Shown piece after piece: positions 1,737-64,000 of a stretch of 64,000 bases of DNA. The DNA comes from a virus, in the IMG/VR virus record IMGVR_UViG_3300043464_001630, positions 172,392 through 236,391 of that record, one strand, 5' to 3'. Position numbers and translations under genes: made by a program. Positions within the stretch are counted from its first letter, which is position 1. Each line of letters starts with the position of its first letter. Under the pieces are notes generated by a model, which was not told the origin of the DNA, did not search any database, and saw nothing but the letters and a program-made list of their open reading frames with translations.

Positions 1737-4700
1737 GAACTTCTAGTACACTTCAATGATATTGTTAAACTACCAGCATTATCATTTGAAGTAACTACGA
1801 ATTGTAGATAAGAATCAGCAGGAATTGCAGTAACCCAGCCAGTCATGGTAGTTGAAGATGCCTTGGTTGTATTTACCAAAGCTGGTTGGTTTGATAATCC
1901 TGATATTACCGTATAAGTAGGATGGCTTGCAAAATTAGAAGTTAATACTTGAACAATTGAATTTGTTGGTTGGTTTGCTAGTAAAGTCCATGATAATATT
2001 TTAGTATTATATGGTATTTGAATATAACCGAAAGCATTTTCTTGTACTAAACTCGAACCTCCGTCAAATATAAAGTTTATTTGAGCAGGAATAGGAGTAA
2101 TGTTAAAAATATTAGATCCGTCACCATAGAAAGTTCCGCTAATATTTGGTGAACTTACAGAAGTATTGAATGTTGCTGTAGTTCCAGTTAATCCACCCGT
2201 TAATACACCACCAGATAATCCAAGTTTTGTAATATCTATTGATGTTAATCCGGTCACGCGAGTACCGTCACCATAAAAAATTCCACTAATGCTTGGAGCA
2301 CTGAGTGAAGTTGTGAAAATTGCAGTGGTTCCAGTTAACCCACCTGTTAATACTCCTCCAGCTAATGGTAGCTTACTACCGTCTATTCCAGATACACCAG
2401 TCAATCTGCTTCCATTTCCATAAAAAGCACCACTGAGATTAGGAGCACTAAGTGAAGTGGTAAACAATCCGACAGTTCCAGTTAATCCACCCGTTAATAC
2501 ACCACCAGATAAAGCAAGTTTGCTAATATCTATTGATGTTAATCCAGTCACGCGAGTACCGTCACCATAAAAAATTCCACTAATACTAGGAGCACTGAGT
2601 GAAGTTGTGAAAATTGCAGTGGTTCCGGTCAGACCTCCTGTTAATACTCCACCAGCTAATGGTAGTTTGCTACCATCAATTCCAGACACACTAGTCAATC
2701 CACTTCCGTTTCCATAAAAAACACCACTGAGATTAGGAGCACTGAGTGAAGTTGTAAACAATCCGACAGTTCCGGTTAATGTACCAGTTAATGCTCCACC
2801 TGATAATGGAAGTTTTGTTGGGTCTGCTGCTAATGCAATTCCTGATGTTGTTATTGATGATTTTACCCAAGTATTTGGAGCAGTACAAACATAAAAGAAA
2901 GTGGAATCGTACGCTACTTGTCCTGCTAATCCATAAGATGAACTAGTTGCGGGAGCAGATACAAACGCAACGTTCGTAGTTCTGGCACTATTAGCACCAG
3001 AAGTAGTAAGATACATGAAATTACCATCCCATTCTACAGAATTCTGAACTGGTGTGGTTAATAACGTACCTGCTTGGAATCTTAAAGGTGCTGTAGTTGT
3101 GCTTCCAACTGCTAAAGTTTGTGTGCTTGTAAATGTATTTGCGAATAATACTGCGTTTGTATTGCCTCTTGCATAAGCTTGAGTTATTGTCAAAGCCGTA
3201 GTTCCCACTACAATATCAGAAGTTCCTCCACCAGTCGAAGTATTACATGCGTAAATAAATCCATGCGAAGAAGTTCCTTTTGAAACACTGAACATTGTAC
3301 CGTTACGTACAGTTCCTTTATAAAAAGAAGGACGTTCTAATACTGCTTGTATTCCGACTCCTCCGACATTTATTACTTTCCAAGGTCCATTTTGTGCTTG
3401 ATTGGTTTGCGAAACAAATAAAATAATATCTCCTACAGATGGAGTAACACCTTCTACCACAGCTAATGCACCCGGATTGGTATATGTAAATACATCAGAT
3501 ACTACACTTCCTGCTTGATTGGTAGGGTTTCTTAATGTTACGAAATAATGAGGAACATTCGTTCCGTTAGAAACATCTCCATAAAATGTTCCGCTAATAC
3601 TTTGAGCACTAATATTATTAAATAATGCACTAGTACCAGTTACTCCACCAGTTAATGTTCCACCACTTAATGGTAATTTATTAAAATCTGTTGCTAATAT
3701 ATTTGTTAATCCAGTTCCATCACCAAAGAAAGAACCGCTAAGATTTGGTGCGCTTAATGAAGTTGTGAATAATCCTACAGTTCCTGTTAATGATCCTGTT
3801 AAGTTTCCACCTACTAATGGAAGTTTTGAGACGTCTATTCCAGAAACGCCAGTTAGTCCGCTTCCATTACCAAAGAAAGATCCACTAATACTAGCAGAAC
3901 TTAATGAAGTTGTGAATAATCCTACAGTTCCTGTTAAGGAACCAGTTAATATTCCTCCACTTAATGGGAGTTTACTGGAATCCGTTCCTACTATATTCGT
4001 TAAAAGGCTACCGTCTCCACGGAATTTATCTGCCCAAATATCATGCTTTGCACTGATTTCACCGTTAACAGTTAATTCTTTATTTGGTTCGGATTCTCTA
4101 ACACCAACTCTACCATCATTGCCAATGTGGAAAACTTCACCATAATCTTGATCATAAAACGAAGCAATATCATATGCGCCACTTGTTTGGAAAACGTATA
4201 AGGCAGGTCCAGCACCATAATTAATAACACTTAATGCACTTGTAGTGGTGAATACAGTGTTCACAAACGTAGCACTACTTAATGCGGTTAATGCCCCATT
4301 AATAATTAAATTTCCGTCTATTCTACCACCAGTTAATGCAAGTTTTGAACTATCAATTCCAATTAGATTAGTCAAACCACTTCCATCACCATAAAATGTT
4401 CCACTTAAATTTGGAGCACTTAATGATGTAGTAAATAATCCTTCAGTTCCTGTTAATGATCCAGTTAATACACCTCCTGCTAATGAAAGTTTACTTCCGT
4501 CTATTCCAGAAACACCCGTTAACCTGCTACCATCTCCATAAAATGATCCACTTAAACTAGGAGCACTTAGAGATATTGTAAATAACCCACTAGTACCAGT
4601 TAATCCATCTGTTAATGTTCCTCCTGATAAAGGTAATTTTCCATTATCAATTCCAATTAGATTAGTTAAACCACTACCATCTCCGTAAAATGATCCACTT

Positions 4701-25174: not shown

Positions 25175-27130
25175 TTAGAAAGTACCTGCATCCATTGCGC
25201 AATTGACTAGTGTGTAATTAGTCATTGTTCCGCTAACGGTTGCACTGATTGTTACATCAGTCATTGAACCGCCAGTGATACTAACTGCATCGTAGTTTTG
25301 TGATGCAATAGTACCAAGAACAGTTACACCAGAAGCACCAGTGAGACTGTCAACAGCAGATTCAAGAACGTCGAGACGCTCATCGGCAGCAGCTTCGCTA
25401 GCAACTAAAGCAGAGCTTAGAGTTGCATAGTTGTTTGCCATAGTTACGACGAAACTCTCGTCATCGCCAATAGCACTTGCAAGTTCGCGGAGTGTGTCGA
25501 GAAGCTCTGGAGCACCCCCAACAAGATCGCTGATTTTCTGGTCAGCATAAGCTTGTGCATCAGAAAGAACTTGTGAATCACGAGCGATCATGTCTGAGCT
25601 TAGAGAACCGATTGCGGTCTCAAGAGCACCAGAAACACCTACAAGTTCAGTGTGGGCAGTTGAAACTGCATCCGCAATGTCTTGACTAAGATCGGCTGAA
25701 ACAGAAGCTAGCTCAGAATGAGCACCAGCTACTGCGTCAGCAATGTCTTGTGAAAGTTCACCAGAAACAGAAACTAGTGCAGAATTTGCACCAGCTACTG
25801 CATCAGCGATATCTTGAGTTAATTCGCCAGAAACTGAAACGAGTTCAGAATGTGCAGCAGAAGCGGCATCAGCGATGTCTTGTGAAAGATCACCAGAAAC
25901 GCTTACGAGTTCAGAATGAGCAGCAGCGGCTGCATCGAGGATATCTTGTGAAAGATCACCAGAAACAGAAACTAGTTCAGAGTGAGCAGCGGCAGCAGCA
26001 TCAAGAATGTCTTGGCTGAGTTCGCCTGAAACTGAAACGAGTTCAGTGTGAGCGGCAGAAGCAGCGTCAGCAATGTCTTGTGAGAGATCACCAGAAACTG
26101 AAACAAGTTCAGAATGAGCAGCAGCGGCTGCATCGGCAATATCCTGAGTTAAATCACCAGAAACTGAAACGAGTTCGCTATGAGCAGCAGCGGCTGCGTC
26201 ACTGATGTCTTGAGTTAGTTCACCAGAAACGCTTACAAGAGCTGCGTTAAGGTCATCAATTTCGCCCTGAAGGGTGCCGCTAGCAGCGACAGTTTCAGCC
26301 CGAAGATCGTCAATCTCACCTTGTAGAACACCACTAACAGAAGCTAGGTTAGAGGATGCGCTATTAGCGAGATTGGTTATAGTATTGTTAATATCGCCAT
26401 CAGCGGCCTGAAATGCACTAACGATTTCGGTTAATGAATCAAGAGCGGCTGGGTCGATGTTGCTGAGAACATTGTCAATGCGAGTATTAGCTGCATCGAT
26501 TGCACCAGATAGTGCGGTTTCGGCAGTAGTAGCACGAGAAACTTCATCAGCTAAGTCGCTGGCTAAAGTGCCAGAAGCAGCTACAGCTTCAGTGCGAAGT
26601 TGTTCAATTGTCCCTTCAAGAGTTGAAACTTCAGAGTCAATTTTAGAATCGAGAGCAGCAGAAGCTGCAACCATTTCAGCGTGTAAATCAGCTACTTCAG
26701 AATCGATTTTGCTGTCAAGGGCAGCAGAAGCTGCGACCATTTCGGCATGTAGATCAGAAACTTCAGTGTCGATCTTGCTGTCAAGAGCGGCAGAAGCTGC
26801 TACAACTTCAGCGCGGAGATCAGCGATTTCACTGTCGACAGTTGCTGAGAGAGAGTCAATCTTGCTATCAAGAAAAGAAGAAACAGAACCTACTTCAGAG
26901 CGTAAGCCACCGAGTTCACTGGTAAGACCAGCAGCAATTTCCTCAACATACCCATTACCACCAATGGGGATGATTTCGGTTGCTGTACCACTGCCGTCAT
27001 CTCCACGACCGTAGTAAAGGGTGTTATCGACTTCGTTGAAGGCGAGTTCTGCATTAAGTAGTGAGGCTGGTGCTCCTGAAAGGGCTCCAACTTCATCTAA
27101 ACGACGTTTGATACGAATAATATTTGCCAT
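25175..27130 (-). CDS. Anchor plus alanine-rich coiled-coil fibre shaft
   Basis: This 651-aa protein begins with the anchor (IIRIKRR, GAPASLLNAELAFNE, TLYYG). Residues about 70-200 and 250-560 form a long coiled coil from repeats of about 22 residues, SVSGDLSQDIADAAAAAHSE, at least nine in a row. The C-terminus (residues about 600-651) is a beta domain with VTISATVSGTMTNYTLVN. It looks like a long trimeric shaft ending in a small tip. The repeats make this stretch noticeably GC-richer than its neighbours. Confidence 0.78.
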   Translation of the reverse strand: MANIIRIKRRLDEVGALSGAPASLLNAELAFNEVDNTLYYGRGDDGSGTATEIIPIGGNGYVEEIAAGLTSELGGLRSEVGSVSSFLDSKIDSLSATVDSEIADLRAEVVAASAALDSKIDTEVSDLHAEMVAASAALDSKIDSEVADLHAEMVAASAALDSKIDSEVSTLEGTIEQLRTEAVAASGTLASDLADEVSRATTAETALSGAIDAANTRIDNVLSNIDPAALDSLTEIVSAFQAADGDINNTITNLANSASSNLASVSGVLQGEIDDLRAETVAASGTLQGEIDDLNAALVSVSGELTQDISDAAAAAHSELVSVSGDLTQDIADAAAAAHSELVSVSGDLSQDIADAASAAHTELVSVSGELSQDILDAAAAAHSELVSVSGDLSQDILDAAAAAHSELVSVSGDLSQDIADAASAAHSELVSVSGELTQDIADAVAGANSALVSVSGELSQDIADAVAGAHSELASVSADLSQDIADAVSTAHTELVGVSGALETAIGSLSSDMIARDSQVLSDAQAYADQKISDLVGGAPELLDTLRELASAIGDDESFVVTMANNYATLSSALVASEAAADERLDVLESAVDSLTGASGVTVLGTIASQNYDAVSITGGSMTDVTISATVSGTMTNYTLVNCAMDAGTF

Positions 27131-62114: not shown

Positions 62115-62888
62115 ATGAATTTTGATAAGCTAGTTAAGCGTTTAACCGAAGCACCAGTAGGTGATATTGGTTTACACGGTGATTGGGAAAATGAAAAACT
62201 ACACCGTTATGATCGTCCTTCTATGCGAGCATTGAAAAAAGAAGGATATCTAGAAAAAGTAAAATCAAAGTTCGCAAAAGATATCGCAGTAAATTTTAAC
62301 TTATTTTTCGTTAAATCTGCACAAGCTGGCAAACATAGAGAAGTAGGAATTGTTTCTCCTGATAGATTACGTTCTATGATTTCAGATGTAAATTTAGATC
62401 CTATATTAAATTCTTCTAATGAGAATAATATTACGATTGTGTTCACAAATAACGTAGGCGATCAGAAAGTTCCGTTAACTCCTTGGATTATTGCACACAG
62501 AACTAGTCATGCTCTTTATCGTGGATCAATGAACGATAAAGAAATAAAAAGAGAATATACTTTTTTTATGCAAGAATACAAAAATACGTTAAAACATTGT
62601 TACGGTATTTTAATAAATGACTACGGAAGTGGTGTGGATAAAGATAATAGTCAGAAATTAAAGAGATTCTTTAGTACTGTAGGTACATTCAAATCGGCTA
62701 GAGATAAAAAAGTTATACGTCCATTTGAGTTTATCCATGAATGTTTCGCGCAATATCTAATGGAAGGTGGAATTACGTTTAACGAAGGAGAAGAAAGAAG
62801 AATGTGTTCATACGAATTACAAACTAACTTCGAAGCTTTATTCAGTCATGTGTTGTATAAATCTGAGGGCAAAATTTTTGTGATGTAG
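62115..62888 (+). CDS. Virion-associated protein with targeting-like N-terminus
   Basis: This 257-aa protein starts MNFDKLVKRLTEAPVGDIGL, the clearest T4-like capsid-targeting peptide here (cleavage expected after LTE). The core has VPLTPWIIAHRTSHALYRGS, a block I associate with large-phage proteins of unknown role, and later FEFIHECFAQYLMEGGI. His and Glu residues (HRTSH, HE) could bind metal but no standard HExxH is present. It is probably a packaged protein. Confidence 0.6.
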   Translation: MNFDKLVKRLTEAPVGDIGLHGDWENEKLHRYDRPSMRALKKEGYLEKVKSKFAKDIAVNFNLFFVKSAQAGKHREVGIVSPDRLRSMISDVNLDPILNSSNENNITIVFTNNVGDQKVPLTPWIIAHRTSHALYRGSMNDKEIKREYTFFMQEYKNTLKHCYGILINDYGSGVDKDNSQKLKRFFSTVGTFKSARDKKVIRPFEFIHECFAQYLMEGGITFNEGEERRMCSYELQTNFEALFSHVLYKSEGKIFVM

Positions 62889-62891
62889 GCA

Positions 62892-62919
62892 TTGACACTC
62901 ATCATTTTTCTGTTAATAT
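62892..62919 (+). promoter_or_regulatory. Sigma70-like promoter of the structured RNA
   Basis: TTGACA (62892-62897), 16-bp spacer, TAATAT (62914-62919). The start at about 62926 coincides with the first helix of the predicted RNA. Confidence 0.6.
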
Positions 62920-62925
62920 AGGCCA

Positions 62926-63063
62926 CATCAGAGAGATTTAGGTTAGTTTAAAGTTTTATCTCTGATATTGCATGGCGTAAACACTAACCTTAGACGTTAA
63001 TGGATCGGACTACTTCCGGTCGTATCGTTGAACGAAGTGACAATATCCGGAATAAAACACTTC
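62926..63063 (+). ncRNA. Candidate non-coding RNA with a pseudoknot
   Basis: Part of the 362-bp gene-free stretch 62889-63250. Helix A: ATCAGAGA (62927-62934) with TCTCTGAT (62959-62966). Helix B: AGGTTAGT (62940-62947) with ACTAACCT (62983-62990). B starts in the loop of A and closes beyond it, which is an H-type pseudoknot of two perfect 8-bp helices. Further stems: GATCGGA/TCCGGTC (63003-63021, one G-U) and GAAGTG/CACTTC (63034-63063). There is no reading frame. It sits upstream of a TROVE-like gene. I cannot match it to a known riboswitch or ribozyme. Confidence 0.55.
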
Positions 63064-63071
63064 AAAAGTAA

Positions 63072-63099
63072 TTGACTACAAAAAACTTTCTGCTACTAT
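63072..63099 (+). promoter_or_regulatory. Extended -10 promoter of the DUF2828 gene
   Basis: TTGACT (63072-63077), 16-bp spacer, TGC-TACTAT (-10 at 63094-63099 with an upstream TG). Leader about 145 nt. Confidence 0.65.
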
Positions 63100-63113
63100 A
63101 GCACCATCAATTT

Positions 63114-63172
63114 TAGATGCGGAACTGCAAATCCACCTATGACTATGTTCTCCCCCAGAACAACCGCATCTA
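63114..63172 (+). promoter_or_regulatory. Structured 5' leader of the DUF2828 gene
   Basis: TAGATGCGG (63114-63122) pairs perfectly with CCGCATCTA (63164-63172). Inside, TGTTCT (63146-63151) pairs with AGAACA (63157-63162) around CCCCC. The leader is otherwise open and could bind a protein or small molecule. Confidence 0.55.
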
Positions 63173-63250
63173 GCTCTCAGATAGAAACAGCAAACCTAAA
63201 ATACACCGCACGGCTTTCATGCCGCTTATAAAAAACCTATCTAGTAAATT

Positions 63251-63982
63251 ATGAACTCACTAATCAACGCAATCCAAAACAAACAGAACGTAACGACCAC
63301 TGAAAATGGTGCAGCTACACTAATTTCTTCTTTAAAATGTACTGTGGATTTCTTTGGCTTGGGAGGAGCACTACGTACTCGTACTGATGCTGATGTTATT
63401 TCTTTGTTCAGTAAAGCTTTTGCAGAAGATCCCTTGATTGCTGTTAAAACTCTGTTTTTTATCAGAGATTGCCGCTCTGGAAGTGGTGAACGTAAAACTT
63501 TTCGTACTATCTTTAACTGGCTATCTAAAGAGTATCCAGAAGTGGCAATTAAGAATCTACAAAATGTAGTAGAGTTTGGACGTTGGGATGATCTATACTC
63601 TACACGGGGAACCGACATTTGGAAGAGTCATGTTCTTCCGATGATCCAAAACGAATGGTTCAAGGGTGGAACTCCTTCACTGGCTTGGAAATGGTTTCCA
63701 TCGAATAACACATCCAGTAAAGAAACTCGTACTATTGCTGAAGAGATTCGTTCATTCTTGGGAATTTCTCCCCGTACTTACCGCAAGACTCTTTCAGAGA
63801 AGCGTGCTATTCTAGACATTGTAGAACGCAAAATGTGTTCTAATAACTGGTCTGATATCAATTACAAAGGAGTACCATCGAAAGCTGCTCTAAATTACAA
63901 GGATGCTTTCGATAAACACGATCATGATCGTTATCAACAATATATTTCAGATGTAAAAGCAGGAAAAACTACTATTAATTAA
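63251..63982 (+). CDS. DUF2828/TROVE-like N-terminal domain, frame cut by TAA
   Basis: This 243-aa product matches the HEAT-like N-terminal domain of phage DUF2828 (TROVE-vWA-like) proteins: FFGLGGALRTRTDADVISLF, KTLFFIRDCRSGSGERKTFR, VVEFGRWDDLY and SDINYKGVPSKAALNYKDAF. Family members are usually far longer and end in a von Willebrand A-like domain. Here the frame stops at TAA 63980-63982, yet the same frame continues directly with GTLYPY, which is the expected next segment of the family. So the stop replaces a single residue. Either the gene is nonsense-mutated or split, the stop is read through, or there is a base error. The window ends 18 bp later. Confidence 0.75.
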   Translation: MNSLINAIQNKQNVTTTENGAATLISSLKCTVDFFGLGGALRTRTDADVISLFSKAFAEDPLIAVKTLFFIRDCRSGSGERKTFRTIFNWLSKEYPEVAIKNLQNVVEFGRWDDLYSTRGTDIWKSHVLPMIQNEWFKGGTPSLAWKWFPSNNTSSKETRTIAEEIRSFLGISPRTYRKTLSEKRAILDIVERKMCSNNWSDINYKGVPSKAALNYKDAFDKHDHDRYQQYISDVKAGKTTIN

Positions 63983-64000
63983 GGAACACTATACCCTTAT

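What the first reader, a model, noticed from the sequence alone, without database searches (positions are those of the whole stretch)
62926..63172. Pseudoknotted RNA and structured leader next to a TROVE-like gene: Y-RNA analogue?
Two perfect 8-bp helices are interleaved as a pseudoknot, beginning right at a predicted start point, and more stems follow. A second promoter then starts a leader closed by a 9-bp stem. Known: bacterial Ro (TROVE) proteins are often encoded beside their Y RNAs, sometimes with RNA-repair genes, and some mycobacteriophages carry Ro. Inference: this may be the RNA partner or a cis-regulator of the DUF2828 protein.
Basis: partly seen in the sequence, partly recalled or inferred. 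Interest (0 to 1): 0.75.

Follow-up and report, generated by a model that had tools for sequence, protein, structure and literature searches.

The report
Phage Y-RNA family beside Ro-like gene
Beside a Ro-like (DUF2828) gene this phage carries several copies of a small folded RNA, and many other phages carry relatives of it beside the same gene, often with pieces that imitate tRNA, so it looks like a large uncatalogued family of viral Y RNAs.

Summary
Three more copies lie just downstream of the DUF2828 gene, across the contig junction. In 85 viral DUF2828 loci the strict motif occurs 71 times on the gene's strand, 0 times on the other, and 1.1 times in shuffles. The stem covaries strongly. 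A search by 5' arm and core alone recovered the matching 3' arm in 58 of 84 cases (control 0), and recovered DUF2828 in 42 of 53 contigs with the arm versus 4 of 26 without. Many relatives carry tRNA-like middles: T loops (53 of 245), 22 in the permuted T arm-acceptor-D arm order of bacterial Y RNA (YrlA), and anticodon-like loops. Rfam's YrlA model hits several below its threshold. DUF2828 is a remote relative of TROVE/Ro60 (hhalign E 8e-6). The pseudoknot helices are real, but no relative was found. Best reading: phage Y RNAs bound by a DUF2828 Ro-like protein. Binding and expression are untested.

The parts
62892..62919 (+). sigma70-like promoter 1 (TTGACA-N16-TAATAT)
   Evidence: sequence; 10 of 12 consensus matches
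62927..62990 (+). H-type pseudoknot (two 8-bp helices) at the start of a putative separate transcript; not part of the RNA family
   Evidence: exact helices; 3/2000 shuffles; no relative found
63072..63099 (+). sigma70-like promoter 2 (TTGACT-N16-TACTAT), 13 nt before copy 1
   Evidence: 9 of 12 consensus matches; strong promoters precede 41/146 first elements in relatives against 4/146 control positions
63113..63173 (+). Y-RNA-like element copy 1: 10-bp closing stem UUAGAUGCGG/CCGCAUCUAG, variant core AACUGCAAAU, inner 6-bp hairpin 63146-63162
   Evidence: z -3.98; same stem arms as sibling copies; missed by covariance model R1, probably because of the A-to-U change in the core
63178..63243 (+). 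Y-RNA-like element copy 2: 6-bp stem AGAUAG/CUAUCU, core AAACAGCAAACC, inner hairpin CGGC-UUUCAU-GCCG (63211-63224)
   Evidence: held-out covariance model hit, 22.7 bits, E 0.028-0.066; fold z -2.69
63251..63982 (+). N-terminal part of the DUF2828/DUF7788 (Ro-like, phrog_850 RNA-binding protein) gene; it continues past the contig junction at G000:C1:3-830
   Evidence: Pfam PF11443 4e-36, PF25043 5e-50; relatives are full-length proteins of about 460-520 aa. The TAA at 63980-63982 lies in the ~147-base overlap of the contig ends, where the other end reads through

Best explanation
Window 63113-63173 and 63178-63243, with three copies downstream of the gene (G000:C1:1353-1404, 1411-1464, 1610-1657), are genes for small noncoding RNAs of a phage Y-RNA family. 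Shown by comparative sequence: a terminal closing stem with a conserved ACAGCAA element in the adjoining internal loop, linkage to a DUF2828 gene on the same strand, and in many relatives an outer module that copies tRNA parts (T arm, anticodon arm, or a whole circularly permuted T arm-acceptor-D arm unit as in YrlA). Inferred: strong promoters make them as small RNAs; the ring-type DUF2828 protein (C-terminal vWA domain, remote kin of Ro60) binds the basal stem plus ACAGCAA; and the outer module recruits or deceives tRNA-handling enzymes, either as a tether or gate in the manner of Rsr-Y RNA-PNPase or as a decoy for tRNA-cutting nucleases. The two short copies in this window carry only simple hairpins as outer modules.
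For: Strand and position: strict motif 71 + hits in 50 of 85 loci, 0 on -, 1.1 in shuffles, 69 of 71 upstream of the gene; relaxed motif 212 + against 5 - in 97 loci, present in 86. Covariation: 8 of 9 pairs changed on both sides, 100 double-change cells against 30 shuffled, score 0.587 against 0.212 shuffled and at most 0.143 slid. Unbiased scan by 5' arm and core: 3' arm in 58/84 against 0/84 control, DUF2828 on the same strand in all 26 matches whose locus holds it, DUF2828 in 42/53 contigs with the arm against 4/26 without, p 7e-8. Held-out covariance search of the whole 236-kb genome gives 4 hits, all flanking DUF2828. Elements upstream of DUF2828 in bacterial-bin contigs found by protein alone and near DUF2828 in cultured phages of Listeria, Felixounavirus, Staphylococcus, Enterococcus, Campylobacter, Aeromonas, Bacillus and Mycobacterium. 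tRNA-like modules: T loops in 35/194 elements against 0.15 expected; 22 in YrlA order; RF02553 hits up to 47.8 bits. Protein: hhalign to TROVE prob 84, E 8e-6. Negative controls: T4 tRNA region and TROVE-phage loci have no element.
Against: No direct evidence of transcription or protein binding. In Listeria phage CKA15 the most abundant RNA (26,236-26,727; PMC12282133) maps to a different stretch, about 1 kb upstream of its elements. Copy 1 in the window has a core substitution and is not found by the covariance model; copy 2 is weak (E 0.03-0.07). No YrlA hit reaches Rfam's gathering score of 69. No element was detected in phage nt-1 or the Erwinia jumbo phage, and only weak ones in cyanophage B23. 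The own genome has no RtcB and no TROVE-family gene.
Confidence: 0.8

Rival explanations
1. The elements are cis-acting: a structured 5' leader by which DUF2828 binds its own mRNA and regulates itself.
For: Most elements (191 of 208) lie upstream of the gene, often ending less than 100 nt from its start codon.
Against: Arrays of 2-8 copies, many 1-3 kb upstream among other genes and tRNAs, some downstream of the gene in this phage, Snenia and REP11; separate promoters; tRNA-like outer modules have no place in a simple leader.
Confidence: 0.12
2. They are relics or processing signals of tRNA genes, or selfish repeats that spread in phage tRNA clusters.
For: In Felixounavirus, Bacillus phage 136 and Listeria phages they sit within or next to tRNA clusters; some contain near-complete tRNA bodies.
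Against: The core and stem are kept while the tRNA body is optional; ARAGORN finds no ordinary tRNA gene in the window or the flanking 40 kb of this phage; T4's tRNA region has no element; linkage is to DUF2828 on the same strand.
Confidence: 0.06
3. The pseudoknotted stretch 62926-63070 is itself the Ro partner or a further functional RNA of the same unit.
For: Good promoter, two exact 8-bp helices (3/2000 shuffles), noncoding, immediately upstream of the elements.
Against: No relative by blastn in phages or DUF2828 loci, no exact match of its 23-base centre in viral contigs, no Rfam match, no ACAGCAA element; relatives lack it.
Confidence: 0.1
4. The stems are transcription terminators or attenuators between genes.
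For: Stable stems in intergenic gaps on the coding strand.
Against: No U-run as a rule after the 3' arm (usually G then UU or UA), and a conserved single-stranded core and tRNA modules that terminators do not need.
Confidence: 0.03

Closest known systems
Bacterial Y RNA YrlA (Rfam RF02553; PDB 6CU1)
   Same: Basal stem from the RNA's two ends, internal loop, then a circularly permuted tRNA-like module (T arm, loop-capped acceptor, D arm); gene next to a Ro-type gene. RF02553 aligns over a whole element (L164 2635-2749, basal stem included).
   Different: All hits are below the gathering score; the conserved element here is ACAGCAA in the basal internal loop; multi-copy arrays; interchangeable modules, many with only an anticodon-like arm or a plain hairpin; partner is DUF2828, not TROVE.
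Rsr/Ro60 (TROVE, PF05731)
   Same: N-terminal part plus C-terminal vWA with the D-x-S-x-S, T and D positions invariant; hhalign E 8e-6 over 250 columns; neighbour RNAs resemble Y RNAs.
   Different: DUF2828/DUF7788 is a separate Pfam family; no PF05731 match in the genome; TROVE loci tested lack the ACAGCAA elements.
Suspected Y RNAs of Listeria phage CKA15 (PMC12282133)
   Same: Same DUF2828 protein family (CKA15_055, found in virions) with noncoding transcripts within 2 kb upstream; its close relative List-36 has three elements directly before the gene.
   Different: The most abundant RNA reported there is another stretch of about 490 nt; the passages read give no motif, structure or family.

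Membership tests
Bacterial Y RNA (YrlA type) | 5' and 3' ends pair in a basal stem | tested here: met
   Covarying 8-9 bp stem in 52 elements; both window copies have it
Bacterial Y RNA (YrlA type) | tRNA-like module in permuted order (T arm, acceptor, D arm) | tested here: inconclusive
   Met in 22 of 245 family elements and seen by RF02553; absent from the short copies in the window
Bacterial Y RNA (YrlA type) | Reaches Rfam RF02553 gathering score | tested here: not met
   Best 47.8 bits against 69; no hit in the window
Bacterial Y RNA (YrlA type) | Encoded beside a Ro/Rsr gene | tested here: inconclusive
   Beside DUF2828 almost throughout; DUF2828 is only a remote relative of Ro
Bacterial Y RNA (YrlA type) | Bound by the Ro-type protein | not testable with these tools
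   Needs binding assay
Ro60/TROVE protein family | Pfam TROVE (PF05731) match | tested here: not met
   No match in own genome or in DUF2828 proteins
Ro60/TROVE protein family | vWA domain with MIDAS residues at the C-terminal side | tested here: met
   D290, S292, S294, T355 and D387 invariant in 34 proteins; VWA_2 weak match; hhalign to TROVE
Ro60/TROVE protein family | Ring of HEAT repeats in three dimensions | not testable with these tools

The most novel reading that the evidence does not exclude
A phage Ro-type particle carries exchangeable RNA arms that copy single parts of tRNA (anticodon arms such as the Lys UUU and Asn GUU loops, T arms, permuted whole tRNAs) and serves as a decoy or repair hub against host defences that cut tRNA during infection.
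Probability: 0.3. Interest if true: 0.9.

Novelty: new variant of a known kind. Interest (0 to 1): 0.75.

Why it matters
Y RNAs were known mainly from animals, some bacteria and a few phages, with TROVE-type Ro. This extends a Y-RNA-like system to the DUF2828 phages (661 records in the phage collection, including easily grown Felix O1-like and Listeria phages), gives a likely partner for a widespread protein of unknown function, supplies a covariance model, and makes the role of phage Ro particles and their tRNA mimicry testable in laboratory phages.

Tried and rejected
Rfam on the window at gathering threshold and on 62880-63260 at E 10: nothing useful. blastn of the region against phages: nothing. 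Exact search for the pseudoknot's centre in viral contigs: nothing. HMM search of PDB with DUF2828: only E 0.23 to a TROVE protein. Laying CKA15 RNA-seq on the elements: rejected as proof, since the most abundant RNA maps elsewhere. RtcB or T4 RNA ligase 1 in the own genome: not found, the latter without a working control. T4 rnaC/rnaD as members: not supported. Main bacterial Y RNA papers (PMC4201824, PMC6047535, PMC10870794) are not held, so the known bacterial Ro-binding consensus could not be read; the comparison uses the Rfam model instead.

Full report
What was checked. The two interleaved 8-bp helices (62927-62934/62959-62966 and 62940-62947/62983-62990), the two promoter-like sites and the long leader stem are in the sequence. 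The leader stem is well beyond chance (z -3.98). The pseudoknot is uncommon locally (3/2000 shuffles), but about four other sites in the window do as well.

Where the evidence led. The window is the end of a 236,391-bp viral contig whose ends overlap, so the DUF2828 gene continues at the contig's start. Reading on past the gene showed three stem-loops with the same design as the leader: UUUAGRUGC, then NNCAGCAAAU, then GCAUCUAG. The same design turned up beside distant DUF2828 genes in other viral contigs, and a second copy was recognised in the window itself at 63178-63243.

Is it real. In 85 loci fetched by protein similarity alone, exact ACAGCAAA with a closing stem of 7 bp or more occurs 71 times on the gene's strand, never on the other, and 1.1 times per shuffle; 69 of 71 lie upstream of the gene. 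A relaxed core gives 212 hits against 5 on the other strand, in 86 of 97 loci. On 52 aligned elements the stem shows two-sided changes in 8 of 9 pairs, with a covariation score of 0.587 against 0.212 in shuffles and at most 0.143 for slid partners. Stem pairing was used to pick these elements, so an independent test was run: viral contigs were scanned for the 5' arm and core only (AAGRCACAYACAGCAAA). The matching 3' arm followed in 58 of 84 cases and never in the equal upstream control. DUF2828 was on the same strand in all 26 matches whose fetched locus held it, and in whole contigs it was found in 42 of 53 with the arm against 4 of 26 without. For scale, 661 of 50,697 phage records hold DUF2828. 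A covariance model built without this genome found four sites in the whole 236 kb, all flanking DUF2828. DUF2828 genes found by protein in bacterial genome bins also carry elements directly upstream. Controls (the T4 tRNA region, TROVE genes in bacteria, TROVE phages) have none.

What the RNA looks like. A closing stem of about 8 bp, usually beginning UAG or AAG; one to three bases; ACAGCAA; a variable middle of 15-110 nt; then the 3' arm. T loops occur in 35 of 194 middles (0.15 expected). Anticodon-like 7-nt loops on stems of 5 bp or more, with T loops also counted, occur in 43 against 4.25 expected; about 30 of them are not T loops, CUUUUAA and CUGUUAA being the commonest. Of 245 unique elements 53 have a T loop and 22 run T arm, loop-capped acceptor, D arm. 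That is the circular permutation known for bacterial Y RNA 6CU1 (PMC11472068) and the domain set described for YrlA (PMC8394870). Rfam's YrlA model hits several of these below its threshold: Enterococcus phage 47.8 and 34.3 bits; L164 37.2 bits over the whole element, basal stem included. The window's two copies are of the short kind with plain hairpins.

Promoters. Among 146 first elements, 41 have a sigma70 site with 10 or more of 12 consensus matches in the 60 bases before the stem, against 4 at random positions; 34 of the 41 have a 17-base spacer. In the related L084 the first stem closely follows a TTGACA...TAATAT promoter.

The protein. DUF2828 plus DUF7788, phrog_850 'RNA-binding protein'. 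MIDAS residues are invariant in 34 proteins. Profile comparison with four TROVE proteins gives probability 84, E 8e-6 over 250 columns. It is therefore a remote relative, not a TROVE member.

How it most likely works. Shown: conserved RNA family, linkage, covariation, tRNA-like modules. Inferred: small RNAs made from strong promoters, held by the DUF2828 ring through the basal stem and ACAGCAA, presenting tRNA-like modules that tether or mislead tRNA enzymes. For bacterial YrlA, a tether to PNPase is reported (PMC8394870), and inhibition of an anticodon nuclease by its tRNA-like domain has been suggested (PMC7790460). The anticodon-like arms here fit the latter, but this is inference.

Expression. 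Phage CKA15 makes very abundant noncoding RNA within 2 kb upstream of its DUF2828 gene, and its authors suggested Y RNAs (PMC12282133). Mapping its coordinates onto the List-36 locus shows that the most abundant stretch is about 1 kb from the three elements, so those data do not settle whether the elements are expressed.

The pseudoknot. No relative, no Rfam match, absent before the elements of the relatives read. It may be a separate short RNA or chance; it is not the family member.

Novelty. No paper on this RNA family or on a phage role of DUF2828 was found in the held library. Phage Y RNAs as such have been suggested before, hence a new variant of a known kind.

Noticed in passing
window 63854-64000 and G000:C1:1-147: The contig ends overlap by about 147 bases with one mismatch, which puts a stop (TAA, 63980-63982) in the window's DUF2828 frame; the other end reads through. 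Probably an assembly-end error.
   Followed up: partly
L021 5315-5578: tRNA-Asn(GTT) interrupted by a 190-nt intron in the anticodon loop (ARAGORN); another tRNA-like gene at about L021 1755-2055 also looks interrupted. Rfam's group I intron model did not ring.
   Followed up: partly
L021 1521-1607: Between the downstream elements a further stretch is closed by AUCUUAUCAAG.../...CUUGGUAAGAU with inner GACG/CGUC pairing, with no ACAGCAA; possibly another small RNA.
   Followed up: no
L097 about 2987-3478 (Listeria phage List-36; cka15 26,236-26,727): The most abundant transcript of Listeria phage CKA15 is an unexplained noncoding stretch of about 490 nt upstream of DUF2828, behind a good sigma70 promoter.
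   Followed up: partly
L103 940-1290; L162 4240-4692 (-); L131 around 5264: tmRNA genes (149.7, 90.7 and 69.5 bits) lie in phage loci that carry the Y-like elements.
   Followed up: no
L004 2919-5962: Bacillus phage vB_BcoS-136 carries about eight elements in the unannotated gaps of its tRNA cluster, some enclosing nearly whole tRNA bodies.
   Followed up: partly
L021 7100-8395: A 431-aa reading frame that looks like a DUF1501-type cellular protein (from memory, untested), which could hint at a planctomycete or verrucomicrobial host.
   Followed up: no
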